DNA from: a virus
IMG/VR virus record: IMGVR_UViG_3300042291_000512
Coordinates: 1-55,213 of that record
Reading direction: 5' to 3' (one strand)
DNA length: 55,213 nt
The notes beneath the pieces are model-generated. The model was not told the origin of the DNA and searched no databases. It saw only the letters and a program-made list of their open reading frames with translations. This document shows, in pieces, positions 4,792 to 55,213 of this stretch. The stretch's first letter is position 1. Every line of letters begins with the position of its first letter. A program made the translations under genes and the position numbers.

Positions 4792-4793
4792 AA

Positions 4794-5817: not shown

Positions 5818-5844
5818 AACATAACAAACAAAGAATAGAATATT

Positions 5845-6345: not shown

Positions 6346-6773
6346 TGGCAATTGTATTAGGACAAAAATTAGTACAAGATACTAAAAAGTATGAAGATTA
6401 TGCGATAGGTATATCATTACCAATCCAAATCGGTAATACTGCGTTCAATCAAACCTTTACAACAAATGAGCAAATTAAATCAAATGTAAAAAATCTATTA
6501 TTAACTAAAAAAGGAGAAAGAGTAATGCAGCCTGAATTTGGTAGTGGGTTGCAGGAATTACTTTTTGATTTTAATGATGATACATTATCTGGTAAAATTG
6601 AAGATGCGATAACAGCAGCTTTAGAGCAATGGTTACCATATGTTACAGTAGAACAAATAGATGTAGAAAGTACAAGCAACAATAGAGATAATAATTTAGT
6701 AAATGTTTCCGTAACATTCGGATTGTTAAATCAAGTTGATTTAAACACGGTATCTTTTACAATAGCCGCTTAA
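6345..6773 (+). CDS. 25: Baseplate wedge subunit gp25
   Basis: A 142-residue gp25/GPW family protein, close to T4 gp25 (132 residues). It holds the diagnostic EPR-type strand-turn region KGERVMQPEFGSGLQELLF at about 59-77, and the usual alternating beta C-terminus. gp25-like proteins nucleate sheath polymerisation from the baseplate in all contractile injection machines and bind gp6. It is coupled to the upstream gene (TAATG overlap) and is followed 10 bases later by gene 6, the usual partner order. Confidence 0.93.
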   Translation: MAIVLGQKLVQDTKKYEDYAIGISLPIQIGNTAFNQTFTTNEQIKSNVKNLLLTKKGERVMQPEFGSGLQELLFDFNDDTLSGKIEDAITAALEQWLPYVTVEQIDVESTSNNRDNNLVNVSVTFGLLNQVDLNTVSFTIAA

Positions 6774-6783
6774 TAAAATAAAA

Positions 6784-9890: not shown

Positions 9891-9892
9891 TA

Positions 9893-12210: not shown

Positions 12211-12216
12211 TATAAA

Positions 12217-12225
12217 ATACTTATA
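12217..12225 (+). promoter_or_regulatory. Late-type promoter element (C variant)
   Basis: ATACTTATA, 5 bases before the ATG at 12231; a transcript from it would be nearly leaderless, so this site is less certain. Confidence 0.45.
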
Positions 12226-12230
12226 AAGTA

Positions 12231-25550: not shown

Positions 25551-28500
25551 ATGGCAAGAATCAAAAAATATGCGGATAATTTAACGCAAAATTTAACTTA
25601 TTTTCAAACATTTGTAACAGATACAAATCCAAATTCGGATTATTTTAGAATTACTGAATTTAAAGAATCATTTACTGGAGGTAAGAATGGATTTCTAATT
25701 GAAGGCTCTGAGTATTTAAAAGAGAGTACTGATATAAAAATAGAAATATTAGACGTTGAAGGTAATCCAATTTATTTTGAACCAGGTAATGGTGTTCCTG
25801 AGTACTATGAGGGGTTATCAAAAGTTATAGCTGTTTACATATATGAAGATACTCCAATTGGTAATGCGAAAATTACTATATTGGGAGAATTAAAAACTTA
25901 TTTGGATGGGGATGGTATTGCTCAACCAATTCCTAGTGAATGGGCTGGTATATATAACGTTAAGTGGGAAAGAGAATTTAAAGTAAATAGATTACTTTCA
26001 AATGAAGATAAGGTAAGATTTTATGTAAGACCTGAAGTCACTATTAGTGAAATAGTTAAACCAATATTTTCAAATGTAGTTGCACCAAAAACTCAAAGTG
26101 GAATTATAAATGGTATTGCACAGGTTCCTGTGGCGGGCACTTCATTAACAAATTATACATCACCGAGAACTTATATTTTAGAAACCGTTGGTAATTCGTT
26201 TTGGACGGGTTCTATTGTTGGAACGTATTTAGATACCAACTTATTAGTATCAGATGCAACCTCTCCACTTGGAAGTGCGGCACCACTTATACCATATAAA
26301 CCACTAGTAACCCAGGTAATTAATTCAAGAGAAATATTAGTACAGCCACCATATACTGAATATGGCTTAGTAGCTAATACTGAAAATGCAACATATACCG
26401 GAATATTTAATTATACCGAGGGTGTAGATAATTTAAAAACGGCATTAACTGGTTCATTTGCAAAAATAACATTAGCGGATTTGACTACTTTTGTGGGAGA
26501 TTGTGCTAGAGTTAAAATATTTAGGAAATCAACGGCAGACTTATCTGATTTTCAATTTGTTCAAGAAATACAATTAGAATCAAATGAAATTTTAGTTGAT
26601 TTAGCATCTACTACAAAAAATCAAGAAAATTATGGATTATTTGATAATATCAATTTTAAAGAATATTGGGTAACATCCTCAAACGATTTGGATGCATCAT
26701 TTGAACAATCGTTTTTATTTGATTCTATAAAATTAAACAGTACATCCGGTGTAAATAAATTCTTTACAACAAAATCATTAAATATAAATGAAGGTATTGA
26801 ATACAGTTTAAATTTTAATGTTAGAAAAGAAGCAATTGGCAATCGTAGTAATTACATTGAAGCATATTTAAGTGGTTCTAAACAAACAATTGTAAATGGT
26901 TCACCTGCTACACTTCAAGTAAAACAAAGTATTGTAAGATTAGATACTCAAAATTCTTTACTTGAAAAACAAATTATTACTGAAAATATAAAAGCTGAAG
27001 AAATAAATAATGCTAGATTATATTTCGACATAAAAGGATTTGATTGGCATATTGCCGATGTTAGTTTAAAAGCATCACAAGAAACGGCATTTTCTCCAGA
27101 TGAAATTACATTTATTCAATCAGTACCAAGAAGTTTACCAGTTGAAACATTTATATATCGTTTTGAATTTTACGATATAAATAATAATTATATACCTGTA
27201 TTAGTTGAAGAAACAAAAACATTTGATGGAGGAAATTTACAAAGAATACAAAAAGGATTAGTATTTTCACCTAGATCGCTAACATTTCAATTTGATTCGG
27301 GTTCAAATCCAGTACCACCGACTGTTGTAGGGTTTACGGTGACAAAAAATTTACTAACAGGTTCAGTCAATTATACATCACAATCTTTTGATTTTTTTGG
27401 AGATGAGTTATTTGCTTCAGATTATACCGCATCATTTACCGGCCAAAGATATCCTGGATTACTTAGTGATATTACATCCGATGCTCCTACAATGACTGTT
27501 GGTAATTTCACAGGTTCTAGAGGCGATAAGTTAGTACAAATTGTAAAAATTACTGGAGAAGTTGAAGGATATACTGATACTGTTATATTCACTAAAGTAT
27601 TAGACGGATTTGGTGGGGTAAACTATTTGATTAGACCGTATAGAGGTACTCAGATTAGAAATAGTAGTACATCATCTTTAGAGATTCAGGCTATACGAAT
27701 AGATGGTGTAAATGATATTCAATTGAGTAGTTTAACCAAACCAGAAAAAGGTTGGCCTGATAAACAATTACACATCATATCTCGTTCGGCTGATGGAGCT
27801 GAGAAATTTGTAAATTTATCATACGCATCTTCTAGTGGGTATGTTAGAGGATTGATAACTGGTTCTTTGGGTAGTGGTGAAATTAATTATAACGCAATAT
27901 TCAATAGAGATTCGATAGATTTTAGAAGAACGATATATTTGATATCATCCGCATCCGCTGCATCTAGTCCGGCATATATAGCATCAGCATCCGTTGTTGC
28001 ATCACAAATATTAGAAGATTTACAAGATGGATTGGATAGTGGTGTTGTAATTTATAACGCAGATTCATTTACAATAAATCCAAGAACAGATAAATTATTT
28101 AAACCAGTATTTGGATTTGCAACTGCATCATTTGCAAAAAGAGGAACGGCTGCAGCTGAAATCGACGCAGTAACAGCATCATTTCAAGTATACCCATCAA
28201 TGTCAATAAATAGAGATTGGGTTCCTGAATATTGGATGTATTATATGACTCAAAGTTTAGACCCAACAATTACTGTTGTTGCTAAAGATGATAATAAAAT
28301 TTTAATACCTTCACAAAAGCCAGAAGGAGTTGAATCATTCTATGTTAGAAGTCCTTTAAATCAAACTAAAAATTTAACACTAACATTTACATATACTGAA
28401 CCTTGGACATCGGCATCCGTTAGTATTGATAAAACATTTACAATTGTACCGGAAGGTAAGCAAGGAGATGAAAGTATTGTATTTGAAGTAAGTCCAATAT

Positions 28501-31500
28501 CAGTAGTTCTTGGCGCAAATTCAAGAGGGATTGTAAATGATTACAGACCATCTATAACCGATATTAGATTAAAGCAAGGTTCTAAATATCTTGCGTTTAG
28601 TTCAAGTGCACATGTGTTGGATAACTTAAATACTCATGGTACATTCTATATAGCAACGGCATCTATAATAGATACCAATGTTACGGCCGGTAATGTTCAA
28701 TTTACTTCATCATTTTTAGTACCATATACTGCATCTTTAATAGTAAGTGCTTCATCAAATATGACAGATTTAAGTGGAAGTATTGAGTATCCCTTAATTA
28801 TACATCCATACTTTACATCTTCGATTTATAGCGCTAGTGTATTTGTAAACTATACAAAGATATTAGAAGGAGCTCCGCCAATTCAAATAATAATATCACC
28901 CACATCGGTAGCATTAACAGCAGATGAAGTTGGATACATTACACCAGGTGGATACTCCGCAGCAAATACAACGATACAAGTAAAAGACGGAGATGATTTT
29001 TTAAAATTAACAACAACTGAATCTTTTGCAAACGCCGATACTAGAAAAGGTACATACACAATTAATTCAATAGCTGCAAATGCTATTCAAGTTACAAAAA
29101 TAGCATCTTCATCTTTATCTGGATTAACAGGAACTGTAACTTATAATCGATTTGATTATCCATTTGTTTCTGCAAGTGCACTTTATACACTTCAAGTATA
29201 TCCTTACGCATTGGGTGCTGGGCATCAACCTACTTCATCTATTTTTACTCGTACGCAAACATTTACAAAAAATGTAACACCACCTAAAGCTCGTAGTGTA
29301 GATTTCAAAGCATCCGCATATACAGTAAACTATGATAGAAATGGTAGAGTATCGTTAGCATCGCAATCGCCAATTATATTATCAGCAACTGCATTTAATA
29401 CAACCGCATCGGCTGATAAGGTATATATTGTAATATCGGAAATAGCGCAGGATGGTTCTGAAAGTGGTGAATCCGCACCAATACCCGGCGCGGGAAATCC
29501 TGTAACATTTACATTACCAGATGTAAACTTTGAGGATGTAGCACCCGGTTCAATAAAAACATTTAAAGTTAAAATTACTGATGGAAATCCATACACATCT
29601 CCAACTGTAAATCCATATAGGGCAGAAGCTCAATTAACGATAAGTGGTGTAAAAGCCGGTGCAGACTCATACAAGCTAGTAGCATCAAATGAAAGCACTG
29701 CTATAACCGCTGATTTATGGGGACCTACTATATTTTCTAATACCGGTATGAAAATCACCACATTTAATGGTACTCAACAATTAATAAATGAAACTAGTGC
29801 ATTACCACAAGCCAATTTATTTGATGAAAATTTAGACTTTGAGGGGAATCCGATTGGGGTATTAGGGTATTCATCCGCATCGATAGTTTATAAAGATAAT
29901 TGGATTGGATTAACTGGAGGAACGCCTCCAAAGCTCACAGCATTATCAAACCCCGCTTCAATTGGAGATATAATTAGTTGGACTACGCCAGCTACAAATA
30001 CATCTGGAAAAATTGTATATAGAGTAGATTTTGAAGGAGATTCATCTACAACTGACCCATTGGTAAGACCGTTAGCTAGACAAACTCAATTTGTAACTCA
30101 ATCAATATCTGTTCAATTTACACCACCACCTCCGTATGATGTAAAGATGACTAATGAAAATTCATCCGCAGTTTATAAAGTAGCGGGTACGTTATCATTT
30201 GCTGGAACTGGTACACAAATTAGAGTTTATAGAGGAGGCACTGAATTGGTGAATACGAATTATAATCCATTGGTACCAGGTCCTGATCTTGATGCATACG
30301 GAAATTATGGATATAAAGATAAATGTAGAATTAGTATAGACTCATATTCATCGGGTATAATTACTTTAGCCGGAACTTTAACTGGAGGTAACCCTGTTCC
30401 TGGTGCACCCGCAACAATGGGAGATATTATAGGTTGGGCTACACCGGCTTCAAATCCAAGTGCGCAAATAGTTTATGAAATTAATTGTGAAGGTAGGCAA
30501 ACTTTTTATAAAACACAATCCCTATCAATTCAATATGAAGGTAATGTAGGCCCGGGTCTTGTTATGAGAGGTGAGTGGGATGCAACTAAAGATTATTATG
30601 GTTCAGTTGAAAACATAAATGATAGATTGGATGTTGTTACTTACCAAGCCACTTCAGATGATACAAAATATTATGCAGCAATTAGTGGGTCTGGCCCAAA
30701 CACTTGGGTAAATCCAACTACATCAACTTTTTATAGAGGAGTATCGCCACCTGCAGGTTTTACTTTTAATGTACTAGCACAAGCACCAACACCAAGTACA
30801 ACACAAGTACCACCAGTAGCATATTGGAGATATTTGGGAACGCAAGATTTCTTTGTGGCAGCTAAGTTGGCAATATTTGAAAAATCATATGTTAAGAATT
30901 CTATAAACGTTGGTACTAAGGATACCAGTGGTGATTTTGCTAATATTGTAATAAACGGAGGAAGACCGGACCCATATATTGCTTTAGGGCAAGTTGGTAG
31001 TACTGCTGGAACGGCTGGTACATCTGGTACATCAACCACTGGATCTGGTGTTATCGGATATGATAAGCCTGGTATATTTTTAGGAATGTATGAAAATGGT
31101 TCTTTCGGTACAACTGGTAGATTCTCAATAAAAACTACTTCTACTTCTGGAAAGGGAATGTCTTGGGATGGTGATGTTTTAACTATTATAGGGGCAATTA
31201 GACAAATTCAACCGGGTGTTAGTGAGGGTTCGTTAAGGGGAGCTTGGACATCTGGAGATACTTATTACACAAATGATATAGTTTCATACGGAGGACAAAG
31301 TTGGAGATGTACATCGGCGCAAGCACAAAATTATCAAAACATTGCAACAAACGATACAAATGCATTAACTGGATATCCCGGTTCTGGTCCTTGGGCAATT
31401 GCGGCCTCAGCAGGAACATCTGGAACTTCAGGAGCTCTCGGTGCTACTGGTGGACCCGGTCCTGGTGTAGTTTATAGAGGACCGTGGGCTCAATTTGAAT

Positions 31501-33710
31501 CCGATGGAACTACTGCTAAACAATATTTCAGAGAACCAGCATCACCTGCAGCTGCGACAAGACGTGATGTTGTAAAAGGAAGTGATGGTGCATATTATTT
31601 ATGTAAGGTAAATCACACAACCGCAGTAGGTAGTGGGGGTGTTTCAACTAAACCAATTACTGGTGTTGATTATGCAACATATTGGGAATCATTTGGAGCA
31701 ACATTTAGTTCAGTAGCAACCGATGTATTATTATCACAGGATGCAACTATTACAAGAGCATTAGTTATGGGTAGTGATGATGATGGTATTGGTATAATAC
31801 GTTCCGTCGATGCAACTGCATTTAATGCAGGAGCTGGATTTTTTATGGATAAAACTGGAAGGGCTAGATTTGGAGACCCTACTGGAAATCAAATAAAATT
31901 TGATGGTACTAATTTTGAAATCACAGGTTCAATAAACGCAACGGACGGACAAATTGGGGATTGGGTTATTGATGCTACTACAAGAGCATTAAGAGATACT
32001 GATTCTCAAATAATACTTGACCCAAATATTCCTGAAATACAATTTTATACTGGTAGTGGTGCTGGTAGGGTAAAAAAAGTAAGTATTTCTCCTGTAAAAG
32101 CATTATCATCTCCAAGTGCTACACCTATAATATTATATCTTACTGGTTCATATACATTACCAACTCCATCTATAACAACCACAGCGGGCTATACTACTCA
32201 AGAAGTAAAATATTCGGCATATACAACTTCCGGTAGTGTATCGGATGGCGTAAATAATTTAGGTAGATATAACGTTACAGAACTTGGATTTGTACAAGTA
32301 ACTGCGAATATACCTACTTTCGAAGTAGAAACACCACCGAATTCAATATCACATACCACCACCTTTCCATCGTACTTCCCTCAATACTCAGAGCAAAAAC
32401 ACGGAGGATACTCTAGTCCACAAACAGCGGTTGCGTATTTGTATTTAGAAGCTGTTAAGGTTAGTGATGATAGTGTAATAGGGCAGTCGTATATTGGTAA
32501 TTCCAGTTCAACCGGAGAGTATGATGAGGGTAACTATTATATAGAAGATTTTTACTCCGTTACGGGTGATACTTTAATTATAAATGAATTTGGTGAAAGT
32601 ATTTACGCAAAAGATGTTATCGTAGGACAAATTATTACGGCGTGGGATTGGCATAGTTCGTTTAAAAAATACAAAATAGAAAATATCAAAACCAGAACTG
32701 TTAATAAAATATTCAAAGTATCAGCTGGCGGTAAGGAAGTGAAAGTTTCCGAAACACATGGATTTTGGCTAGACGGTAATGCAGAAATAAAAGTAAGTGA
32801 TTTAATACCGGGTGAAAGTAAAATAAATATAAAAGATGGCAATACTATAAAATTAGTAATTGTAGATAATGTTGAAATTATTGAAAGTGTTCAAACTGTA
32901 TATACGTTTGTTGTACCTGTTGCACATAACTACATTTCAAATGATATAATATCACACAATCCTAGTTATTGGGCACTTACCCCTGCAAATACAATATCTG
33001 CAGTTTCGTATCCATTTACCGGTGGAGAAATTACAACCAATATATTCTTAAGTGCTACAGGATTGATAAGATTTAGATATGCATTTTATTTTTACGCAGC
33101 AGCGGGCACCGCGGTAAGTTTAGGAGCGACTGTCGATAGTTATAGCACTTCAGTTTCAAATTGGACGTTTAATGCGTTTAGTACAATGACAGCACTCGGT
33201 GATACAATGTCAATACTAGCTCCAGCCAACTTTGTTGAAATTAATGCAGGTGGTTTGCAAGTAATATCGGATTCGGATAAATATGTTAGAATACCAAGAA
33301 GAGCTACGGGAGCGGCTGTTGGGGATTTACTTAAGGTATTCGGTGGAAATATCAGAACGGATAATATACTACCAAATGATACTGGACGAACGGTTGGTTC
33401 ATCTTATGAAAAGTATGATTATATGTATTCTGCGCATTACTATGGAACTCCATACGTTGCAGCCACGAACGGATATACATATTTAACAAATGGAATTATA
33501 TTACAATGGGGATACCAAGCCTACACTACAACAGCAACACCTGTGGTATTTCCAATAACGTTCCCTAATGCTGTTTATTCAGTACATGTAACAACAAACA
33601 GACTCAATTCGGGAGCAAATGGATATAATCATGCTGGTAGTCTAACAACAGCAGGATTTAGCGCAGTATTTGATGCAGTAGGTGGATGGTGGTCGGCAAT
33701 TGGAGCTTAA
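25551..33710 (+). CDS. Giant tail fibre protein with Ig-like repeats, CBM-like modules, Hint domain and gp53-like tip
   Basis: A 2719-residue fibre. Residues about 1-900 are mixed beta domains. About 980-1280 hold Ig-like repeats (ISPTSVALTADEVGYITPGG; VSPISVVLGANSRGIV). About 1375-1670 is a tandem repeat sharing GDIISWTTPATNTSGKIVY / GDIIGWATPASNPSAQIVY. Three carbohydrate-binding-like modules follow near 1672, 1895 and 1973 (LRGAWTSGDTYYTNDIVSYG type), separated by short GTSGTSG linkers. About 2060-2190 has the phage fibre block IKFDFDGT-like FDGTNFEITGSINATDGQIG. A Hint domain occupies 2336-2470. The last 100 residues (YLTNGIILQWGYQAYTTTAT, VVFPITFPNAVYSVHV) match gp53-like fibre tips that bind the receptor. 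The chaperone gene follows by 14 bases. Confidence 0.85.
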   Translation: MARIKKYADNLTQNLTYFQTFVTDTNPNSDYFRITEFKESFTGGKNGFLIEGSEYLKESTDIKIEILDVEGNPIYFEPGNGVPEYYEGLSKVIAVYIYEDTPIGNAKITILGELKTYLDGDGIAQPIPSEWAGIYNVKWEREFKVNRLLSNEDKVRFYVRPEVTISEIVKPIFSNVVAPKTQSGIINGIAQVPVAGTSLTNYTSPRTYILETVGNSFWTGSIVGTYLDTNLLVSDATSPLGSAAPLIPYKPLVTQVINSREILVQPPYTEYGLVANTENATYTGIFNYTEGVDNLKTALTGSFAKITLADLTTFVGDCARVKIFRKSTADLSDFQFVQEIQLESNEILVDLASTTKNQENYGLFDNINFKEYWVTSSNDLDASFEQSFLFDSIKLNSTSGVNKFFTTKSLNINEGIEYSLNFNVRKEAIGNRSNYIEAYLSGSKQTIVNGSPATLQVKQSIVRLDTQNSLLEKQIITENIKAEEINNARLYFDIKGFDWHIADVSLKASQETAFSPDEITFIQSVPRSLPVETFIYRFEFYDINNNYIPVLVEETKTFDGGNLQRIQKGLVFSPRSLTFQFDSGSNPVPPTVVGFTVTKNLLTGSVNYTSQSFDFFGDELFASDYTASFTGQRYPGLLSDITSDAPTMTVGNFTGSRGDKLVQIVKITGEVEGYTDTVIFTKVLDGFGGVNYLIRPYRGTQIRNSSTSSLEIQAIRIDGVNDIQLSSLTKPEKGWPDKQLHIISRSADGAEKFVNLSYASSSGYVRGLITGSLGSGEINYNAIFNRDSIDFRRTIYLISSASAASSPAYIASASVVASQILEDLQDGLDSGVVIYNADSFTINPRTDKLFKPVFGFATASFAKRGTAAAEIDAVTASFQVYPSMSINRDWVPEYWMYYMTQSLDPTITVVAKDDNKILIPSQKPEGVESFYVRSPLNQTKNLTLTFTYTEPWTSASVSIDKTFTIVPEGKQGDESIVFEVSPISVVLGANSRGIVNDYRPSITDIRLKQGSKYLAFSSSAHVLDNLNTHGTFYIATASIIDTNVTAGNVQFTSSFLVPYTASLIVSASSNMTDLSGSIEYPLIIHPYFTSSIYSASVFVNYTKILEGAPPIQIIISPTSVALTADEVGYITPGGYSAANTTIQVKDGDDFLKLTTTESFANADTRKGTYTINSIAANAIQVTKIASSSLSGLTGTVTYNRFDYPFVSASALYTLQVYPYALGAGHQPTSSIFTRTQTFTKNVTPPKARSVDFKASAYTVNYDRNGRVSLASQSPIILSATAFNTTASADKVYIVISEIAQDGSESGESAPIPGAGNPVTFTLPDVNFEDVAPGSIKTFKVKITDGNPYTSPTVNPYRAEAQLTISGVKAGADSYKLVASNESTAITADLWGPTIFSNTGMKITTFNGTQQLINETSALPQANLFDENLDFEGNPIGVLGYSSASIVYKDNWIGLTGGTPPKLTALSNPASIGDIISWTTPATNTSGKIVYRVDFEGDSSTTDPLVRPLARQTQFVTQSISVQFTPPPPYDVKMTNENSSAVYKVAGTLSFAGTGTQIRVYRGGTELVNTNYNPLVPGPDLDAYGNYGYKDKCRISIDSYSSGIITLAGTLTGGNPVPGAPATMGDIIGWATPASNPSAQIVYEINCEGRQTFYKTQSLSIQYEGNVGPGLVMRGEWDATKDYYGSVENINDRLDVVTYQATSDDTKYYAAISGSGPNTWVNPTTSTFYRGVSPPAGFTFNVLAQAPTPSTTQVPPVAYWRYLGTQDFFVAAKLAIFEKSYVKNSINVGTKDTSGDFANIVINGGRPDPYIALGQVGSTAGTAGTSGTSTTGSGVIGYDKPGIFLGMYENGSFGTTGRFSIKTTSTSGKGMSWDGDVLTIIGAIRQIQPGVSEGSLRGAWTSGDTYYTNDIVSYGGQSWRCTSAQAQNYQNIATNDTNALTGYPGSGPWAIAASAGTSGTSGALGATGGPGPGVVYRGPWAQFESDGTTAKQYFREPASPAAATRRDVVKGSDGAYYLCKVNHTTAVGSGGVSTKPITGVDYATYWESFGATFSSVATDVLLSQDATITRALVMGSDDDGIGIIRSVDATAFNAGAGFFMDKTGRARFGDPTGNQIKFDGTNFEITGSINATDGQIGDWVIDATTRALRDTDSQIILDPNIPEIQFYTGSGAGRVKKVSISPVKALSSPSATPIILYLTGSYTLPTPSITTTAGYTTQEVKYSAYTTSGSVSDGVNNLGRYNVTELGFVQVTANIPTFEVETPPNSISHTTTFPSYFPQYSEQKHGGYSSPQTAVAYLYLEAVKVSDDSVIGQSYIGNSSSTGEYDEGNYYIEDFYSVTGDTLIINEFGESIYAKDVIVGQIITAWDWHSSFKKYKIENIKTRTVNKIFKVSAGGKEVKVSETHGFWLDGNAEIKVSDLIPGESKINIKDGNTIKLVIVDNVEIIESVQTVYTFVVPVAHNYISNDIISHNPSYWALTPANTISAVSYPFTGGEITTNIFLSATGLIRFRYAFYFYAAAGTAVSLGATVDSYSTSVSNWTFNAFSTMTALGDTMSILAPANFVEINAGGLQVISDSDKYVRIPRRATGAAVGDLLKVFGGNIRTDNILPNDTGRTVGSSYEKYDYMYSAHYYGTPYVAATNGYTYLTNGIILQWGYQAYTTTATPVVFPITFPNAVYSVHVTTNRLNSGANGYNHAGSLTTAGFSAVFDAVGGWWSAIGA
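32556..32960 (+). other. Hint (intein-like) domain inside the tail fibre
   Basis: Codons 2336-2470 of the fibre encode a 135-residue Hint fold. Block A is SVTGDTLIINEFGESI with Ser in position 1. A block-B-like VSETHGFWLDG carries the conserved His. The C-terminal blocks read VPVAHNYISNDIISHN, with the canonical penultimate His and terminal Asn. The residue after Asn is Pro, not Cys/Ser/Thr, so normal splicing is doubtful. No homing endonuclease is inserted. Confidence 0.85.
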
Positions 33711-34156: not shown

Positions 34157-34441
34157 ATGGCACAAAAGACCGAACAATTACCAAAGGAAACATTAGATAC
34201 TCTAATATCATACCAAACTCAAGCAAACGAATTGATATTAAATTTAGGACAAATTCATTTAAGAATTAGAGAATTGCAATTGGAAATTAAAAAATTGGAA
34301 TCTGTTAAGGAAAATATAGAAACCGAATCTGACAAAATTGGATTGGAATTTAATCAAGTTATCAAAGATTTGGAAAACTTATATCCAAAGGGAGAAGTTG
34401 ATTTGCAAGAAGGTGTTGTTTTATTTGAATCTGCAGAATAA
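34157..34441 (+). CDS. Coiled-coil protein, paralogue of the gene at 37871
   Basis: A 94-residue, mostly helical protein. The stretch LGQIHLRIRELQLEIKKLES ... DLENLYPKGEVDLQEGVVLF aligns with FGQIYLRKKEIQDELTGLDD ... ALDDRYPQGRINLQDGTIQY of the gene at 37871. It has its own late-type element of the C variant (34133-34141), as does its paralogue. The pair brackets the glycosylation cassette. Function unknown; short coiled-coil proteins of this type are common in T4-like virion regions. Confidence 0.75.
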   Translation: MAQKTEQLPKETLDTLISYQTQANELILNLGQIHLRIRELQLEIKKLESVKENIETESDKIGLEFNQVIKDLENLYPKGEVDLQEGVVLFESAE

Positions 34442-34446: not shown

Positions 34447-34478
34447 TTTGGTGCTTTCAATATAATTTCGTATCTTTG
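34447..34478 (+). promoter_or_regulatory. Bacteroidota-type promoter for glycosylation cassette
   Basis: TTTG at 34447-34450, a 20-bp spacer and TATCTTTG at 34471-34478. The predicted transcript would start about 12 bases before the ATG at 34496. Confidence 0.83.
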
Positions 34479-34495: not shown

Positions 34496-36673
34496 ATGTT
34501 AAAAAAGAAGTTACTCTATGTTGCTCCCCATTTATCTACCGGAGGACAACCACAATACCTATATAAGCAGGTAAAAGAATTCATAAAAGATTTTGAGATT
34601 GAAGTTGTTGAAATAAACAATAGCGGTGGTGATGCGTTTGTTGTTCAAAAAAATAGAATCAAATCGTTAGTACCTATACATACATTGGGGGATGATAAAT
34701 CTACGATACTAGAGATAATTCAGAAATTTAATCCTGATATTATACATTTTCAAGAAATACCAGAATTTGATTTAGCTCCATTTGTATTAGATAAAATATT
34801 TGAAAAAAATAGGTCATATTTTATTGTAGCATCTACACATGGTTCATTAACTAACCCATCTGAAATATCTTACCATCCTGATAAATACATTTTAGTATCA
34901 GAATGGAGTAGACAGAGATTTATTGAAACTGGAGTAGAAACCGACATATGGCAATATCCTATTGAAGATTATGTATTTGATAAAGAGGCTGCACAAAAGG
35001 AATTAGGATTAGACCCAACTTGGAAGCATGTACTTAATGTTGGGTTATTTGCACCAGGTAAAAATCAAGGAGAAATATTTGCAATAGCAACTCAACTACA
35101 AAAATATAAAATTAAATTTCACTTCGTAGGAAATCAGGCCGGAAATTTTGAACATTATTGGGGCCCATTGATGGAGCATGTTCCTGAAAATTGTGTAATA
35201 TGGGGAGAACGAACCGATGTGGATACATTTTATTCTGCAGTAGATATGTTTTATTTTGCATCTAAACTAGAATTAAATCCACTTTCAATAAAAGAAGCAC
35301 TTTCATATAAACTTCCTTGTATATTTAGAAAATTGCATACATATTTGGATACATATGATAATAATCCATTGGTAACTTATATTGATGACGATTTAAAATT
35401 AATTAAAAGAATTATATTAGAAAAACTACAACCGCAATTTAATGAAATACCTGGTTGGTTTTCATACGAAGATATATATAACGATGTAGTTACTTTATTA
35501 AATAACGAAGATACATTTGTTGAAGTAGGAACTTGGTTTGGTAAGTCTACAAATTATATGGCAAGTAAGATTAAAGAATCTGGTAAAGATATAAAATTTA
35601 CAACCATAGATACATTCAAAGGAACTGATAATGAAACATTGCATAAAAATATAGTAGATAGTTTTAGTGGAGATATATTTTATGAGTTCATAGATAACAC
35701 AGTCCTATCAAATAATTACGGCTCATTCGATATTATAAAAGACACATCTCATAATGCATCTAATAACTTTTCAAACAATAGTATAAATTATATAATGTTA
35801 GATGCTGGACATAGTTACGAAGATGTAAAAAATGATATTAATGTTTGGTACAAAAAAGTAAAACCAGGTGGTGTTATTAGTGGTGATGATTATGGAGGAA
35901 CTTTCTTTCCTGGAGTTACCCAAGCAGCGGATGAATACTTTTATAAACAATTCAATAGAGGATTTAGAACTTGGTATCGTAAAAAACCTCGTATTCAAAT
36001 AAAACATATGTTGACTAGACCCAATGATATGAGAGAAAGAGTATCTATTCAATCTATTAAACAATTGGAAAAATATGGAATGTATTACGAACCGATTGTA
36101 AATCAACCATACGAGGGATTTGCACCAGCTGAAAATTGTAGAAGGCCAGAACATATAAGTAAAGATAATAAGCCGGGTGAGTTATACCCTGGTGCAGGTT
36201 TAGGATGGATGACTGGTAGACACTATGGTTGCTACTTAGCACATAGAATGGCATTGGAAACTATGGATACTGAAAAATTTGATTACACTTTAGTATTTGA
36301 AGCAGATGCATTTATCTATACGGGTTTGGAAGAATTTGTTGAAATAGTACATAAAGCATGTTTCTTATCAGAAAGAGATAATGTTCCATTTATTTCATTT
36401 GCAGATAACCCATCAAGAGAAAAAACAAAAATTGATGAGTTGTTTTCAAAGACAGCAGCGAATCAAGACCTTGCACATTGTTATTTAATTCCAAATAGAG
36501 AAAAACAATGGTGGGCCGATAGATTAAAAGATTGTGGTTGGGATGTTGGTGATTTGTGGTTTAATCATGTATTTATCAATCACCCAAGACCAAGATATAC
36601 AACAAACAAAATGTATAGTAAGCAAGCAGAGGGATTCTCTTTATTGGATTTAACAGTTAAAACTTGGAGTTAA
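34496..36673 (+). CDS. Three-domain glycosyltransferase / methyltransferase / glycosyltransferase-like protein
   Basis: A 725-residue fusion. Residues 1-325 look like a GT-B glycosyltransferase of family 4 type (KLLYVAPHLSTGGQPQYLYK, HVLNVGLFAPGKNQGEIFAI, ELNPLSIKEALSYKLPCIFR). Residues 340-480 are a class I SAM methyltransferase: FVEVGTWFGKSTNYMA (motif I, Glu343-Gly345) and IMLDAGHSYEDVKND (Asp436), as in sugar or cell-surface methyltransferases. Residues 500-725 contain a GT-A-like domain with VFEADAFIY (Asp604) as a likely metal motif. A host-like promoter drives it, and its stop overlaps the next start by one base. It probably decorates a phage protein or sugar with a methylated glycan; the actual substrate is unknown. 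Confidence 0.78.
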   Translation: MLKKKLLYVAPHLSTGGQPQYLYKQVKEFIKDFEIEVVEINNSGGDAFVVQKNRIKSLVPIHTLGDDKSTILEIIQKFNPDIIHFQEIPEFDLAPFVLDKIFEKNRSYFIVASTHGSLTNPSEISYHPDKYILVSEWSRQRFIETGVETDIWQYPIEDYVFDKEAAQKELGLDPTWKHVLNVGLFAPGKNQGEIFAIATQLQKYKIKFHFVGNQAGNFEHYWGPLMEHVPENCVIWGERTDVDTFYSAVDMFYFASKLELNPLSIKEALSYKLPCIFRKLHTYLDTYDNNPLVTYIDDDLKLIKRIILEKLQPQFNEIPGWFSYEDIYNDVVTLLNNEDTFVEVGTWFGKSTNYMASKIKESGKDIKFTTIDTFKGTDNETLHKNIVDSFSGDIFYEFIDNTVLSNNYGSFDIIKDTSHNASNNFSNNSINYIMLDAGHSYEDVKNDINVWYKKVKPGGVISGDDYGGTFFPGVTQAADEYFYKQFNRGFRTWYRKKPRIQIKHMLTRPNDMRERVSIQSIKQLEKYGMYYEPIVNQPYEGFAPAENCRRPEHISKDNKPGELYPGAGLGWMTGRHYGCYLAHRMALETMDTEKFDYTLVFEADAFIYTGLEEFVEIVHKACFLSERDNVPFISFADNPSREKTKIDELFSKTAANQDLAHCYLIPNREKQWWADRLKDCGWDVGDLWFNHVFINHPRPRYTTNKMYSKQAEGFSLLDLTVKTWS

Positions 36674-37821
36674 TGATATACGATAATTTAAAAAAGAACA
36701 AAAATAATATAGTTGAGGTACAAAACAAAGTGATAGTTCATTTTGTTAAAGGACCGTATGTAGAAATAAAAGGAAGTAAGGCTTCGGAATATAAAGTTGA
36801 ATTTATAGATAATAAAACCAATAAAATACATTATGCAGCAACTATAAAAAACAATTGTTGGTGTAAATCAAATATTGAATATTTTGTAGAATGGAAAATA
36901 AAAATTTATGAAAATGATAAATTATGGTATGAGTACATTTATAATGCAAAAGGTAAGCGTGTTTATATAGCAATGGATTCAAAGGCATTAGGGGATTCTT
37001 TGGCATGGGTAGCGTATGTTGAAGAATTTAGAAAAAAACACGAATGTGAAGTAACAACTTCAACATTTATGAACGATATGTTTATACAACAATATCCCAA
37101 TGTAACATTTGTATCACCAGGAACTCCTGTTGAAAATCTTTACGCGATGTATTGTGTTGGATTATTTTACAATGATGATAGTTCTATAAATTTAATGAAA
37201 AATCCAATAGACCCTAAAACACAAACAATGCAAAAAATGTGTTCCGATATATTGGGATTGGATTTCATAGAAGTTAGAACTAAAATAAAAAAACGAAATA
37301 TAAAAATAGACCCAAATCTTAAACAAGTTTGTATTGGTATATTTGGGACCGCTCAATCTAAATTTTGGAATAACCCAACAGGATGGCAAGATGTTGTTAA
37401 TTGGTTAAAGGAACGTGGGTATGTTGTAAAATTACTTTCGAGAGAGGGTGATGATTATATGGGAAATAAATTACCAAACGGAATTGTACAACATCCCAAT
37501 GGACCATTAGAATTGGTAATGGATGAAATGTTAAAATCAAAAGCATTTATTGGTATTGGTAGTGGATTGAGTTGGTTGAGTTGGAGTTTAAATGTTCCAA
37601 CTGTATTGATTAGTGGATTCTCATACGATTGGGCCGAGATGAAAGATTGTTATAGAGTAGCAGCACCAAAAGGTAAATGTGAGGGATGTTTTAATAGACT
37701 TAGATTGGATCCTGGTGATTGGAATTGGTGTCCGGACCATAAGGGAACTGATAGACAATTTGAGTGTACAAACTCAATAACATCAGAAATGGTAATAAAA
37801 GAATTGGAAAAATTCTTATAA
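36673..37821 (+). CDS. BAHT/TibC-like protein O-heptosyltransferase
   Basis: A 382-residue protein resembling the autotransporter strand-loop-strand O-heptosyltransferase family (Aah/TibC). It has an N-terminal beta domain, then a GT-B catalytic part (MDSKALGDSLAWVAYVEEFR, FGTAQSKFWNNPTGWQDVV, FIGIGSGLSWLSWSLNVP). The C-terminal four-cysteine cluster is Cys336-x2-Cys339-x13-Cys353-x11-Cys365 (KGKCEGCFNRLRLD ... WNWCPD ... FECTNS), which in TibC binds iron. Known members transfer heptose from ADP-heptose to Ser of adhesins. ATG at 36673 overlaps the upstream stop; the in-frame TTG at 36664 is less likely. Its position just after the fibre suggests glycosylation of virion proteins, which is inference. 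Confidence 0.82.
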   Translation: MIYDNLKKNKNNIVEVQNKVIVHFVKGPYVEIKGSKASEYKVEFIDNKTNKIHYAATIKNNCWCKSNIEYFVEWKIKIYENDKLWYEYIYNAKGKRVYIAMDSKALGDSLAWVAYVEEFRKKHECEVTTSTFMNDMFIQQYPNVTFVSPGTPVENLYAMYCVGLFYNDDSSINLMKNPIDPKTQTMQKMCSDILGLDFIEVRTKIKKRNIKIDPNLKQVCIGIFGTAQSKFWNNPTGWQDVVNWLKERGYVVKLLSREGDDYMGNKLPNGIVQHPNGPLELVMDEMLKSKAFIGIGSGLSWLSWSLNVPTVLISGFSYDWAEMKDCYRVAAPKGKCEGCFNRLRLDPGDWNWCPDHKGTDRQFECTNSITSEMVIKELEKFL

Positions 37822-37870: not shown

Positions 37871-38263
37871 ATGGCAGGATTAGATAACATTCCACAAAAA
37901 ACAACAGTTGAGATTGAAATCGTTAAATTAGACGAAAATGTGCTAGAAAGTATTAAAGATTTAAATCAAAAATCTGCAGGTATCATTAATGAATTTGGAC
38001 AAATCTATCTTAGAAAAAAAGAAATCCAAGATGAATTAACCGGATTGGATGATGTTTTGCAAAAAGGTGAAGATGAGTTTAAATCTATTAATTTTCAATT
38101 GAAAGAAATCATTGAGGCTTTGGATGATAGATACCCACAAGGTAGAATTAACTTACAAGACGGTACAATTCAATATCAACCAGGTGCACCAACTAGAAAA
38201 CAACAAGCTGAACAGCAAGCACAACAATCTTCTGGAAGCGGAATGAAAGTAGTAAAACAATAA
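37871..38263 (+). CDS. Coiled-coil protein, paralogue of the gene at 34157
   Basis: A 130-residue helical protein. Its core (residues about 35-100) is paralogous to the 94-residue protein at 34157, and it adds a Gln/Ser-rich tail (KQQAEQQAQQSSGSG). A C-variant late element lies at 37837-37845. Unknown function. Confidence 0.75.
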   Translation: MAGLDNIPQKTTVEIEIVKLDENVLESIKDLNQKSAGIINEFGQIYLRKKEIQDELTGLDDVLQKGEDEFKSINFQLKEIIEALDDRYPQGRINLQDGTIQYQPGAPTRKQQAEQQAQQSSGSGMKVVKQ

Positions 38264-38294: not shown

Positions 38295-41200
38295 ATGAAC
38301 GAATTATCAAACTTTTTAAGAGAAACAATATTGGGAGAAGCGGCTCAAATGGACAAAGTAGTTGTTGTCTATTCGGGTCGTTTTCAACCATTTCATAAAG
38401 GACACTACGCAACTTATGATAATTTAGTACGCAAATTCGGTAAGGATAGTGTATATATCGGAACTTCTAATGTTACCGATTCAAAGAAATCTCCATTTAA
38501 TTTTAAGGAAAAGAAAGTAATAATGACAACAATGTTTGGTATTCCATCAAACAAAATTGTCAATATTAAAAATCCATATGCGCCTGAAGAAATACTAAAA
38601 AAGTATGAATCTGATACAACTGGTTTAATAGTTGTAGTTGGAGAGAAGGATGAAAATCGTTTAAGTGGTAAATACTTTACTCCATATAAAGGCAAAGTAG
38701 AGAAAGGATATTTGGATAAAGGATATGTGTATGCTTCACCTGCTCAATCAAATCCTATTAGTGGTACTGATGTTAGATATTGGTTAAGTGCTGGTAGCTC
38801 GGATGATAGAAAGAAAAACTTTACAAAAGCATATCCAAAGTTTGATTCTCAGATATTTAAATTAATTACTCTTAAGTTAAAGAGTTTAAAAGAATGTATT
38901 AACGAAGAAATTAAACTAAACGTAAAAATTGGTGATACTATTTTAATGGGTAGATTTAAAAATAAAAAAGTAGTTGTAAAAACAATAGGAACTGATGATT
39001 GGGGGATGCCAACAATCAATGGTAAAAAGGTAGCAACGTTTAGAATTCCTAAAAAAGAAAACCTAAAAGAAATTAATCTCGGTGGATACGGTGCAGATCC
39101 TGGTGAACCTGATACTGGATATATTCCTGATGGAAAAGCTAGAATATTAAATACAACAAAACCAGAACCTTGGTTTAATCAAGGTGGATATACTCAATTA
39201 CATACTCCAAAAGCCGATGATATGAGAGGTAAAGGAAAATCAAAAGATACCGAAACTCAATTTAGAAAAGCGTATTATAAAGTTAAAAACGTAACACAAA
39301 GTACATTAAATCCAGCAGATGACCCGCATAAAGTTGAAGATTGGGAAGAAACTAATAGAGATACTCCATTAGAAAAACCTAAAAGATTTTGGGAATTACC
39401 TGATAATCAAAAAAATACAATAATTTCAAAAGAAGATATTAAAGAAATAGTTGAAGATTTTGATTCTATATTAGATGAGATGGGATTGCCGGGTGGAGCT
39501 GGTGTGGGTTTGAGTTTGCCGGGTGGATATATTAATGGAGCACCAAAAGCTGATGATGTTAAGAAGGTTAGTAAAAAACTTAACAACAAAGGAATAAGTG
39601 GTTATGAAGAAATTGATGAAGATAAAATTCCTGGTGGTTTGGCAAATGGTAAAACTTTAATTGATTTGGCTAATAAGTGGGATTCTAAAGGATATTACGA
39701 ACCAAAGCAATTTGCAGCAGAATATATTAAACCTAAATTGATAAATGGTATTAGAGTTGAAATGGAGCATACATCTGATATTAGATATGCAGCCGAAATA
39801 GCAATGGACCATTTATGGGAAGATTTAAATTATTATCAAAAGTTATCAAGTATTGAAGGTGATAGTATAGCTGAAGCAAGTGGTAATGGTGCTTTCTATA
39901 ATGATGGAAATGCAACAACTGGTACTCAATGGAATGGTACATGGGATGATTATGATAAGCAAAAATACTATTTAGATAATTTGGAAGGTTGGGATTTCTT
40001 TGATGAAATACCATCTAAAAGAGAAAAGAAAAAAGCAGTAGACCAAAAATTACCAATAGATAATCATAAAGATACAACTGATAATTACAATCGTATATTA
40101 AAGCATGATTTAAAATCCCCAATTGATTTTCTTAAAGAATCTTTATTAACTGAAGGTGGTGCGTATGGTCATATGAACCATCCATTTGATATTGAGATGA
40201 ATCTTACCTTTGGTGATTTAAAACAAATTGTGGTAAGAGCTCTTAATGGTGATTTAGAATTAGCAAGAGAGAAGACTGATGGACAAGCATTGGCAGTTAG
40301 TTGGGTAAATGGTAGATTAGTTGCAGCTCGTAACAAATCACACCTAAAGAACAAAGGAACTGGCGCTATGACAATAGGACAAGTAGCAGATAAGTTTGCC
40401 GGTAGAGGTGGATTAACCGATGCATATAATTTCGCTATGAAAGATTTATCCGCAGCAATAGCAGCCCTATCTGAACCTCAACGTAAGAAGGTTTTTAAGG
40501 ATGGTAGTTCGTTTATGAACTTAGAAGTAATATATCCAACGTCTGTAAATGTAATCCCCTACAATCAACCCCTATTAGTATTTCATGGTACGTTTGATTA
40601 TGATATGGATGGTACTATTGTAGGTGAAAACCAACAAGCGGCATCTATATTGGGTGGAATGATTAAGCAAGTAAATGCACACGTTCAATCTAAGTACACA
40701 ATACAGGGCCCTCCAATTAATAAACTTCCTAAATCAGAACACCTTTCTAAATTGCAAGGAAAGTATTTAGGAATGATTACTAAACTTCAAAATGAGTTTA
40801 AGTTAGCAGATAGTGATGGTGTGGCGGATTATCATCAATCATGGTGGACTGATTTCGTAGAAAAGAAAGCTAAGAAGTTAGATTATCAACAAAAAATAGG
40901 ATTAATTAAAAGATGGGCTTTTGGGGACAAAGGTTTCCGTATAGCAGAAATAACTGATGACAAATTAAGAGCATGGGCTGAACAAACCGATAAGCAAGAC
41001 CAACAAAAGATATCAAAGCAAAATCTAATGAGATTTGAGGAGATATTCTTAGGAGTTGGTGCGGATGTATTATCGTTTATGGAATCGGTACTTACTGCAA
41101 ATCCTGATAGTGCTAAAAGACAAATGGTAGCACGTTTAGAAACAACAATATCCCAAGTAAAAGCAAGTGGTGACCCTAAGAAGATTGCAAAATTAAAATT

Positions 41201-41348
41201 AGAATTACAAAGATTAAATGCTTTGGGTGGATTCGAAAAGATTGTACCAAATGAGGGTATTGTATTTGTCTATGGAGGTAACACTTACAAATTAACAGGC
41301 GCATTCGCACCCCTAAATCAAATTTTAGGTATTTTCTTTGATAAATAA
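38295..41348 (+). CDS. Nucleotidyltransferase - DUF5661 - polynucleotide-ligase-like fusion
   Basis: A 1017-residue protein with three recognisable parts. Residues 20-200 are a HIGH-type nucleotidyltransferase: YSGRFQPFHKGHYATYDNL (His34, His37) and ISGTDVR (155-161), as in NMN or pantetheine-phosphate adenylyltransferases. Around 484-520 is a DUF5661-like segment (IRVEMEHTSDIRYAAEIAMD then HLWEDLNYY). Residues 620-1017 look like a nucleotidyltransferase of the DNA/RNA ligase superfamily: Lys660-Thr-Asp-Gly then VNGRLVAARNK, FMNLEVIYP, LLVFHGTFDYD, and EGIVFVYGG (Glu987) with TYKLTG (Lys999). N-terminal FLRETILGEAAQ resembles a prohead-targeting peptide with an (L/I)-x-E cleavage site. Substrates are unknown: NAD metabolism or nucleic-acid end repair are both possible. 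Confidence 0.75.
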   Translation: MNELSNFLRETILGEAAQMDKVVVVYSGRFQPFHKGHYATYDNLVRKFGKDSVYIGTSNVTDSKKSPFNFKEKKVIMTTMFGIPSNKIVNIKNPYAPEEILKKYESDTTGLIVVVGEKDENRLSGKYFTPYKGKVEKGYLDKGYVYASPAQSNPISGTDVRYWLSAGSSDDRKKNFTKAYPKFDSQIFKLITLKLKSLKECINEEIKLNVKIGDTILMGRFKNKKVVVKTIGTDDWGMPTINGKKVATFRIPKKENLKEINLGGYGADPGEPDTGYIPDGKARILNTTKPEPWFNQGGYTQLHTPKADDMRGKGKSKDTETQFRKAYYKVKNVTQSTLNPADDPHKVEDWEETNRDTPLEKPKRFWELPDNQKNTIISKEDIKEIVEDFDSILDEMGLPGGAGVGLSLPGGYINGAPKADDVKKVSKKLNNKGISGYEEIDEDKIPGGLANGKTLIDLANKWDSKGYYEPKQFAAEYIKPKLINGIRVEMEHTSDIRYAAEIAMDHLWEDLNYYQKLSSIEGDSIAEASGNGAFYNDGNATTGTQWNGTWDDYDKQKYYLDNLEGWDFFDEIPSKREKKKAVDQKLPIDNHKDTTDNYNRILKHDLKSPIDFLKESLLTEGGAYGHMNHPFDIEMNLTFGDLKQIVVRALNGDLELAREKTDGQALAVSWVNGRLVAARNKSHLKNKGTGAMTIGQVADKFAGRGGLTDAYNFAMKDLSAAIAALSEPQRKKVFKDGSSFMNLEVIYPTSVNVIPYNQPLLVFHGTFDYDMDGTIVGENQQAASILGGMIKQVNAHVQSKYTIQGPPINKLPKSEHLSKLQGKYLGMITKLQNEFKLADSDGVADYHQSWWTDFVEKKAKKLDYQQKIGLIKRWAFGDKGFRIAEITDDKLRAWAEQTDKQDQQKISKQNLMRFEEIFLGVGADVLSFMESVLTANPDSAKRQMVARLETTISQVKASGDPKKIAKLKLELQRLNALGGFEKIVPNEGIVFVYGGNTYKLTGAFAPLNQILGIFFDK

Positions 41349-54606: not shown

Positions 54607-55213
54607 ATGTCAGTACAAATAAACAAAGATATAACAACTGTCCAAGTTGAAATCCCAAAAACCAATGTTGCAATTGAAACTGCAGTAACGGAAATAACTG
54701 TCCAAACTTCACAGCCGGAAATAATAATAGCAACGGCAGGAGTTCAAGGACCGGTAGGACCAAGAGGTTTTGATACTGGTACTTCAGGAACTTCTGGTAC
54801 AAGCGGAGTAACCGGCACATCGGGAACTTCTGGAATAGGAAGTAATGGTACATCGGGTACATCCGGTTCAAACGGTATAACTGGAGCAGGTGGTACGGCT
54901 GGTTCATCTGGAACATCAGGTTTAAATGGTACATTCTTTGGAAGTAGTGGAACATCTGGAGTAAGTGGAAGTGGTGGCACAAGTGGTACATCAGGAACTT
55001 CTGGAGTAAGTGGAAGTAGTGGGACTAGTGGTATAAGTGGTAGTGATGGTACAAGCGGCACATCTGGAACTTCTGGTACATCAGGAAGTAGTGGGACTAG
55101 TGGAGTAAGTGGAAGTAATGGCACATCAGGAACTTCTGGAACAAGCGGCACCTCTGGGACTACTGGACTTACAGCATTCATACCATTAAAAATATTTGAT
55201 GGTGGTAGTGCTG
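54607..55213 (+). CDS. Collagen-like fibre protein, 5' part (runs off window)
   Basis: The frame opened by ATG at 54607 stays open to the window end (202 codons). Residues 1-50 form a beta-rich head (KDITTVQVEIPKTNVAIETA). A G-x-y region follows, starting GVQGPVGPRG and soon dominated by Gly-Thr-Ser and variants (GTSGTSGVSGSSGTSGIS), to about residue 188. Non-repeat sequence then resumes (LTAFIPLKIFDGG). Such repeats form trimeric, flexible shafts in phage fibres. It is coupled to the preceding gene by one base. The remainder, presumably with the tip, lies beyond the window. Confidence 0.85.
   Translation, partial: MSVQINKDITTVQVEIPKTNVAIETAVTEITVQTSQPEIIIATAGVQGPVGPRGFDTGTSGTSGTSGVTGTSGTSGIGSNGTSGTSGSNGITGAGGTAGSSGTSGLNGTFFGSSGTSGVSGSGGTSGTSGTSGVSGSSGTSGISGSDGTSGTSGTSGTSGSSGTSGVSGSNGTSGTSGTSGTSGTTGLTAFIPLKIFDGGSA
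54772..55170 (+). repeat. Gly-x-y (mostly Gly-Thr-Ser) coding repeat
   Basis: About 130 codons in 9-base steps with many synonymous codon choices (aca/act, tct/tca/agc/agt, ggt/gga/ggc). The repeat is conserved at protein rather than DNA level. Confidence 0.88.

What the first reader, a model, noticed from the sequence alone, without database searches (positions are those of the whole stretch)
34496..37821. Protein-glycosylation cassette next to the tail fibre
A BAHT/TibC-like heptosyltransferase with its four-Cys cluster and a three-domain GT/methyltransferase/GT form a two-gene unit with overlapping start and stop codons, a host-like promoter, and a place immediately after the fibre and its chaperone. 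TibC-type enzymes glycosylate Ser in repetitive beta-structured adhesins; the fibre and the Gly-Thr-Ser protein at 54607 are repetitive and Ser/Thr-rich. The cassette may glycosylate the phage's own fibres or alter host surface proteins.
Basis: partly seen in the sequence, partly recalled or inferred. Interest (0 to 1): 0.8.

Follow-up and report, generated by a model that had tools for sequence, protein, structure and literature searches.

The report
Phage kit for sugar-coating collagen-like fibres
A freshwater phage carries a two-gene sugar-transfer unit with its own promoter; relatives of the unit recur beside serine/threonine-rich collagen-like fibre genes and genes for an activated-heptose supply, which suggests that such phages sugar-coat their own collagen-like fibres with an enzyme type described for bacterial surface adhesins.

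Summary
In detail: a GT4/methyltransferase/GT-A protein (34496-36673) and a TibC-type enzyme (36673-37821) overlap at TAATG behind a promoter. The second gene scores 283 bits to TIGR04414 (cut-off 200) and its model matches TibC 4RAP (TM 0.83). In 102 of 102 window-clade loci with a gene upstream of TibC, that gene is the glycosyltransferase protein, whole or in part. A Bacteroidota-type promoter precedes it in 50 of 54 relatives (3 of 475 upstream regions of other genes).

The target is probably not an SLS beta-helix (none found) but Ser/Thr-rich collagen-like Gly-X-Y fibres. Such tracts (20 or more triplets) occur in 18 of 27 divergent phage TibC loci and 2 of 120 random viral stretches. In 51 of 103 window-clade loci an HldE-domain-II-like gene follows TibC, in 43 also a domain-I-like kinase: part of an ADP-heptose supply. 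The window lacks both beside TibC.

Best reading: TibC starts a heptose-based O-glycan on Ser (perhaps Thr) of the phage's own collagen-like fibres; the other domains extend and cap it. Against: TibC's adenine-contact Arg is Val here (67 of 70), and no substrate was shown. Enzyme family known; phage setting and probable collagen substrate appear new.

The parts
34447..34478 (+). Bacteroidota-type promoter (TTTG-N20-TATCTTTG) of the cassette
   Evidence: the same element begins 29-50 bases before the start codon in 50 of 54 relatives
34496..36673 (+). 725-aa three-domain protein: GT4 glycosyltransferase / Methyltransf_24 / C-terminal GT-A-fold glycosyltransferase
34496..35470 (+). GT4-type glycosyltransferase domain (residues 1-325)
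   Evidence: PF00534 E 1e-7; homologous domain beside or fused to TibC in divergent phages
35519..35893 (+). Methyltransferase domain (residues 342-466)
   Evidence: PF13578 E 4.3e-18
36008..36670 (+). GT-A-fold domain (residues 505-725) with invariant E-x-D
   Evidence: alignment; model of residues 495-725, pLDDT 90.6; COLGALT1 Z 16.7, GnT-I Z 15.7, mimivirus R655 Z 14.4
36673..37821 (+). TibC/Aah-type protein O-glycosyltransferase (382 aa from ATG 36673; ORF of 385 aa from TTG 36664)
54607..55212 (+). Candidate acceptor: collagen-like Gly-Thr-Ser protein, cut by the window end (tracts of 7, 10 and 26 triplets)
   Evidence: a relative's complete 652-aa version has tracts of 7, 10 and 62 triplets
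25551..33710 (+). 2719-aa tail fibre; one short collagen-like tract of 6 triplets at residues 1955-1972 (31413-31466)
34157..34441 (+). 94-aa gene on the 5' side, paralogue of the 130-aa gene on the 3' side
   Evidence: 28% identity over 87 aa, E 3e-13
37871..38263 (+). 130-aa gene on the 3' side; in 51 of 103 relatives an HldE-II-like gene (in 43 also an HldE-I-like gene) is among the next three genes after TibC, before this gene's relative where that is seen

Best explanation
The cassette is a cytoplasmic protein O-glycosylation unit of a T4-like phage, probably of Bacteroidota. The TibC-type enzyme attaches the first sugar, most likely a heptose, to Ser (perhaps also Thr) in the Gly-Thr-Ser / Gly-Ser-Ser triplets of the phage's own collagen-like fibre proteins, here the 54607 protein and similar proteins elsewhere in the genome. 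The GT4 and GT-A domains of the upstream protein extend the sugar and its methyltransferase domain caps it. About half of the window clade also encodes part of an ADP-heptose supply as split HldE-like genes; the window's phage would take the donor from the host or from genes outside the fragment. The glycans would stabilise or shield proline-poor triple helices and alter receptor binding. Shown: gene identities, fold, conserved residues, operon, conserved promoter motif, purifying selection, association with collagen-like and HldE-like genes. Inferred: acceptor, donor, order of steps, benefit, host.
For: TIGR04414 283 bits; model TM 0.83 to TibC, next best GT9/LPS heptosyltransferases. Catalytic Asp, Thr226, Lys230, Trp305 and four iron-finger Cys kept in 70 of 70 distinct phage proteins, hydrophobic thumb pair Tyr-Met in 68 and 69 of 70. 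In 102 of 102 loci with an upstream gene that gene is the GT protein (all three domains in 90, one or two in 12). The same domains are re-fused elsewhere: GT4-TibC in 10 and TibC-MT-GT25like in 1 of 35 divergent loci, related loci included. Collagen-like Ser/Thr tracts of >=20 triplets in 18 of 27 non-redundant divergent TibC loci (17 within 5 kb) vs 2 of 120 random stretches, p 1e-14. TIGR04414 in 8 of 45 Gly-Thr-Ser records vs 0 of 39 Gly-Pro-X records, p 0.006; in 5 of those 8 a collagen gene lies in the about 20 kb fetched around TibC. Strict triplet pattern in 19 of 39 TibC records vs 1 of 21 random records, p 0.0005. L446, whose TibC is 70% identical to the window's, has GT4 and TibC directly after a gene with 149 such triplets. 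Window-clade records G001 (136 kb) and G002 (266 kb), searched in pieces, both hold Ser/Thr-rich collagen-like proteins, tracts up to 271 and 19 triplets. HldE-like genes beside TibC. C-terminal domain fold nearest collagen galactosyltransferase COLGALT1, tied with GnT-I.
Against: Arg286, which contacts adenine in TibC and whose Ala mutant lost most or all activity (PMC4358343 section 11), is Val in 67 of 70. 37 of 45 Gly-Thr-Ser records (many fragments) have no TibC, so such collagens do not need it. 9 of 27 divergent TibC loci show fewer than 20 such triplets; a 636-kb phage shows none within 12 kb. In the window clade the collagen genes seen lie about 17 to 46 kb from the cassette (window, G001, G002), and within 10 kb only short tracts (6-11 triplets) occur, in 12 of 80 loci. 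20 of 39 TibC records miss the strict pattern, though it also misses G001 and G005, which do have tracts. Random controls are not matched for phage type or length. GmhA was not found in 9 phage records. HldE-like scores are below equivalog cut-offs. No glycan has been seen.
Confidence: 0.62

Rival explanations
1. Host-surface remodelling: the enzymes add heptose-containing sugars to host LPS or surface proteins to block superinfection, as proposed for glycosyltransferases and rfaE in pelagimyophages.
For: Glycosyltransferases and rfaE in pelagimyophages are read this way in PMC7029224 (passages seen); the fold also resembles WaaC at lower score; an own host-type promoter allows expression apart from the structural genes.
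Against: The protein is far from LPS heptosyltransferase I (283 bits to TIGR04414, 22 bits to TIGR02193) and keeps the iron finger and thumb of the protein-modifying TibC dodecamer; association with Ser/Thr-rich collagen genes and not with Gly-Pro-X collagens.
Confidence: 0.15
2. The cassette glycosylates another virion protein (the variable 2719-aa fibre, its chaperone or the capsid), and collagen genes merely share the host-recognition regions of aquatic phages.
For: In the window clade the cassette follows the fibre in the loci where the contig reaches that far and the fibre is recognised, while collagen genes are distant; in two cultured freshwater actinophages a variable island covers part of the tail fibre and two collagen-like proteins (PMC10202952, passages).
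Against: In divergent phages a collagen gene lies within 5 kb of TibC in 17 of 27; 0 of 39 records with Gly-Pro-X collagens carry TibC.
Confidence: 0.16
3. The sugar or its nucleotide carrier differs: a TibC-like enzyme using a non-heptose or non-ADP donor on the same acceptors. (This rival overlaps with the best explanation on the acceptor.)
For: Arg286 replaced (8 of 11 diverse phage enzymes lack it, read by eye); the window has no HldE-like gene beside TibC.
Against: Thr226, Lys230, Trp305 kept in 70 of 70; HldE-I/II-like genes follow TibC in 43 of 103 loci of the clade that has Val at this position.
Confidence: 0.2

Closest known systems
BAHT family / TIGR04414: TibC, Aah (E. coli autotransporter heptosyltransferases)
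   Same: Score above curated cut-off, fold, catalytic Asp, three of four donor residues, four-Cys finger, hydrophobic thumb pair
   Different: In phages, paired with a GT4/MT/GT-A protein and often HldE-like genes; adenine-contact Arg replaced; likely acceptor collagen triplets instead of an SLS beta-helix; no autotransporter family match in the window proteins scanned
Glycosylated BclA spore collagens and mimivirus collagens
   Same: Sugars on Gly-X-Y proteins; a virus that glycosylates its own collagen is reported for mimivirus (PMC8968730, passages)
   Different: Here a TibC-type starter enzyme and, by inference, Ser/Thr acceptors in a tailed phage; relation of the BclA enzymes not tested
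Virion glycosylation of mycobacteriophages (Freeman 2023; seen only as cited in PMC12619734 and PMC10568470)
   Same: Glycans on the phage's own structural proteins
   Different: Reported there at the C-termini of capsid and tail-tube subunits; enzyme relation not tested here
Pelagimyophage host-recognition clusters with glycosyltransferases and rfaE (PMC7029224, passages)
   Same: T4-like aquatic phages, glycosyltransferases and rfaE with fibres, triple collagen repeats mentioned
   Different: Read there as host LPS modification; no TibC-type enzyme named in the passages seen

Membership tests
TIGR04414 / BAHT (TibC, Aah) | Curated profile score above cut-off | tested here: met
   283 bits vs 200
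TIGR04414 / BAHT (TibC, Aah) | Catalytic base Asp110 | tested here: met
   Asp111, 70 of 70 phage proteins
TIGR04414 / BAHT (TibC, Aah) | Four-Cys iron finger | tested here: met
   Cys339, 342, 356, 368; 70 of 70; iron binding itself not testable
TIGR04414 / BAHT (TibC, Aah) | N-terminal beta-barrel and thumb with two hydrophobic tip residues | tested here: met
   strands between residues 22 and 92 in the model; Tyr265 in 68, Met266 in 69 and Phe366 in 70 of 70; dodecamer itself not testable
TIGR04414 / BAHT (TibC, Aah) | Donor residues Thr226, Lys230, Trp305 | tested here: met
   70 of 70
TIGR04414 / BAHT (TibC, Aah) | Donor residue Arg286 (adenine contact, described as highly conserved in the family) | tested here: not met
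   Val in 67 of 70; Ile, Leu, Arg once each. So: relative by sequence and fold, ADP-heptose use not established
TIGR04414 / BAHT (TibC, Aah) | Partner autotransporter with strand-loop-strand repeats | tested here: inconclusive
   no SLS/AIDA match in 4 window proteins scanned with NCBIfam and 2 with Pfam, all at E 0.1; the rest of the genome is unknown. Not filed as an autotransporter system
GT25 (collagen galactosyltransferase / LOS glycosyltransferase) | PF01755 above gathering score | tested here: not met
   17.4 vs 24 bits; not filed as GT25
GT25 (collagen galactosyltransferase / LOS glycosyltransferase) | Fold match clearly best to GT25 | tested here: inconclusive
   COLGALT1 Z 16.7, GnT-I 15.7, tied
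HldE domains I and II (genes in relatives, not in the window) | TIGR02198 / TIGR02199 equivalog cut-off | tested here: inconclusive
   best family hits of 4 + 4 proteins, 99.6-121.6 and 87-100.2 bits, below cut-offs 345 and 181.5

The most novel reading that the evidence does not exclude
Tailed phages of several lineages run a dedicated collagen-glycosylation pathway: a TibC-type dodecamer O-heptosylates Ser-rich Gly-X-Y triple-helical fibres, some of them thousands of residues long, further domains extend and methylate the glycan, and many of these phages supply ADP-heptose through their own split HldE. This would be a second acceptor class for the family and a phage-encoded collagen modification.
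Probability: 0.5. Interest if true: 0.85.

Novelty: new variant of a known kind. Interest (0 to 1): 0.72.

Why it matters
In the papers seen, glycosyltransferases of aquatic phages are read as tools against the host surface or for phage DNA (PMC7029224, PMC10202952, passages). This finding points to the virion's own collagen-like fibres as a target, would offer an explanation for how proline-poor, Ser-rich triple helices could be stable, and makes it directly testable. A compact system that glycosylates collagen in bacteria would also be useful for biomaterials. With at least 572 stretches encoding a TibC relative in one viral collection it is common in the environment.

Tried and rejected
LPS heptosyltransferase reading of the TibC gene: rejected on scores (283 vs 22 bits). 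SLS repeats as target: no match in the proteins scanned. The 38295 nucleotidyltransferase fusion as an ADP-heptose synthase: rejected; its best NCBIfam matches are NMN adenylyltransferases. G001 first looked like a counterexample (cassette, nearly collagen-free orthologue of 54607), but its other pieces hold tracts of up to 271 triplets. Bacteroidota promoter across the whole window: only weakly above shuffles (7 found, 3.5 expected, 6 of 100 shuffles reach it); its conservation before the cassette is the evidence. In 35 divergent loci no such promoter was found before a TibC or GT4 gene, so the host inference is for the window clade only. A control with non-TibC phage glycosyltransferases was not run.

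Caveats on counts: 5 of the 11 seeds of the alignment scan came from Gly-Thr-Ser records; at least one divergent locus (L479) lies on a contig also found by the Gly-Thr-Ser scan (L223); mean locus length was about 17 kb in the TibC set and 9 kb in the control. Searches used 45 and 39 distinct records of 30 kb or more out of the 80 printed rows of 120 stretches each; one search used the 39 records of 40 kb or more, related ones included; one search used 21 records of 40 kb or more from 80 printed rows. One search dropped 8 of 35 divergent loci as redundant at 90% identity.
Full report
What is there. The window is a 55,213-base IMG/VR virus fragment with a T4-like structural gene order: a 2719-aa fibre (25551-33710), tail chaperone, a 94-aa gene, the two-gene cassette, a 130-aa gene, a nucleotidyltransferase fusion, terminase genes, portal and capsid genes, and, at the right edge, a collagen-like Gly-Thr-Ser protein (terminase, portal and capsid names are recalled from gene order and sequence, not from a family search). 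The first cassette gene encodes GT4, Methyltransf_24 and a third domain; the second is above the curated cut-off of TIGR04414, the Aah/TibC family. They overlap as TAATG.

The TibC-type protein. Compared with TibC (PMC4358343; passages and section 11 read), the catalytic Asp, the phosphate contacts Thr226 and Lys230, Trp305 and all four iron-finger Cys are kept in 70 of 70 distinct phage proteins; the thumb pair is hydrophobic (Tyr in 68, Met in 69 of 70) and Phe368 is kept in 70 of 70. An AlphaFold model (pLDDT 86) matches TibC chains with TM up to 0.83, far ahead of GT9/LPS heptosyltransferases. One donor residue differs: Arg286, which contacts adenine, is Val in 67 of 70; among 11 diverse phage enzymes 3 keep Arg (read by eye).

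The partner protein. Its third domain modelled well (pLDDT 90.6). The best solved relatives are the human collagen galactosyltransferase COLGALT1 (Z 16.7, rmsd 3.3, 207 residues), N-acetylglucosaminyltransferase I (15.7; tied) and mimivirus R655 (14.4). It is a GT-A enzyme with an invariant E-x-D; its acceptor cannot be told from the fold.

A conserved unit. A scan found 118 close relatives, of which the best 80 were fetched; an alignment-based scan, cut at 600 stretches, found 572 that encode a TibC relative, of which 80 were kept. Of 107 window-clade loci examined, 5 begin with TibC and 102 have a gene upstream; in every one it is the glycosyltransferase protein, with all three domains detected in 90 and one or two in 12 (cut ends, undetected domains, and L446 with GT4 alone). 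dN/dS in seven comparisons each is 0.10-0.20 (TibC), 0.12-0.15 (partner) and 0.05-0.12 (terminase). A Bacteroidota-type promoter (motif recalled; no call names it) begins 29-50 bases before the start codon in 50 of 54 distinct upstream regions of the partner gene, but occurs in only 3 of 475 regions before seven other genes. So the cassette probably has its own transcription start, and the host is probably of Bacteroidota.

Heptose supply. In 51 of 103 window-clade loci with at least 1.5 kb downstream, a gene resembling HldE domain II (adenylyltransferase) is among the next three genes after TibC, nearly always the first, and in 43 a second gene resembles domain I (heptose-7-phosphate kinase). 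NCBIfam ranks these families first by a wide margin but below equivalog cut-offs. A domain-II-like gene occurred in 1 of 120 random stretches and 1 of 120 Gly-Pro-X stretches, a domain-I-like gene in none of these. The two genes also follow GT4-TibC fusions in divergent phages (L491 directly, L474 after one other gene). GmhA was not found in 9 long phage records, so the first step would be the host's. The window has neither gene next to TibC.

The likely acceptor. The distant relatives pointed to collagen: the Microcystis phage Mel-JY01, a 735-kb phage and a contig binned as Rickettsiaceae each have a Ser/Thr-rich Gly-X-Y protein within about 4 kb of the TibC gene, while a 636-kb phage (L162) has none within 12 kb. 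Tested in both directions: 18 of 27 non-redundant divergent TibC loci have at least 20 such triplets (17 within 5 kb) against 2 of 120 random viral stretches. Of records with a Gly-Thr-Ser array 8 of 45 carry TIGR04414; of records with Gly-Pro-X collagens 0 of 39. In 5 of those 8 a collagen gene lies in the about 20 kb fetched around TibC. A strict DNA pattern for four Gly-[Ser/Thr]-[Ser/Thr] triplets occurs in 19 of 39 TibC records and 1 of 21 random ones. The pattern is insensitive: it misses G001, whose collagen-like proteins have up to 271 consecutive triplets, and G005, which has a tract of 62. In 5139 triplets from tracts of 8 or more in TibC loci or TibC-bearing records, X is Thr 43% or Ser 38% and Y is Ser 71% (tracts were chosen for at least 30% Ser/Thr). 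In the window clade: G001 and G002, searched in pieces, hold such proteins; G100, G105 and G107 match the pattern; L446 has one directly before GT4 and TibC. In the window the 54607 protein has tracts of 7, 10 and 26 triplets before the edge and the big fibre only 6.

Mechanism. Fusions suggest that the parts act together: GT4-TibC in 10 and TibC-methyltransferase-GT-A in 1 of 35 divergent loci, and a protein with GT-A, GT4 and TibC domains in L428. I therefore propose: TibC starts the glycan on Ser of the triplets before or during fibre assembly; GT4 and GT-A add sugars; the methyltransferase caps the end. Order, donor and acceptor are inferred. Glycosylation of BclA is believed to aid hydration networks in bacterial collagen (PMC8968730 passages), which offers a reason.

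Against and open. 37 of 45 Gly-Thr-Ser records lack TibC; 9 of 27 divergent loci lack 20 triplets nearby; in the window, G001 and G002 the collagen genes are about 17 to 46 kb from the cassette, and within 10 kb only 12 of 80 close relatives have a tract, of 6-11 triplets; controls are not matched for phage type; Arg286 is lost. The rival, host LPS change, is the published reading for glycosyltransferases and rfaE in pelagimyophages (PMC7029224, passages).

Novelty. In the held open library, TibC+phage+heptosyltransferase gave 5 papers, none of whose titles or abstract starts is about a phage TibC; heptosyltransferase+collagen-like+phage gave none; the listings (titles and abstract starts, capped lists) showed none on this point. 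Subscription papers are mostly not covered. The enzyme family is known; the phage setting, linked donor genes and probable collagen acceptor make it a new variant.

Noticed in passing
window 25551-33710, residues about 2352-2470 of the fibre: A Hint/intein-like domain (PF14890, E 0.0024, below cut-off; ends HNYISNDIISHN-P) lies near the C-terminus of the tail fibre. The end motif was found in 4 of 51 fibre ORFs, the window and its three copies with identical TibC only, so it looks like a recent insertion.
   Followed up: partly
window 34157-34441 and 37871-38263: Two paralogous small genes (28% identity, E 3e-13) bracket the cassette here and in many relatives, as if it sat inside a duplicated gene.
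   Followed up: partly
window 22157-25300: SbcD-like phosphoesterase and SbcC/Rad50-like ATPase are fused in one 1047-aa protein.
   Followed up: no
window 38295-41348: NMN-adenylyltransferase-like domain at the N-terminus of a 1017-aa protein whose relatives vary from about 780 to 1276 aa in the clade and up to 1848 aa in more distant phages; some ORFs may be cut by contig ends.
   Followed up: no
L001 (PP395634.1) 2-3052: The cultured Microcystis phage Mel-JY01 has a long + strand open frame of Gly-Thr-Ser triplets (one tract of 149) where the record annotates mostly opposite-strand hypothetical genes; probably mis-annotated.
   Followed up: partly
L621 (G001:74700-94600), 3-13214: Collagen-like open frame of 4403 residues, open at its 5' end, with 271 consecutive Gly-X-Y triplets in a phage, far above the about 18 residues stated for phage collagens in PMC8968730.
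   Followed up: no
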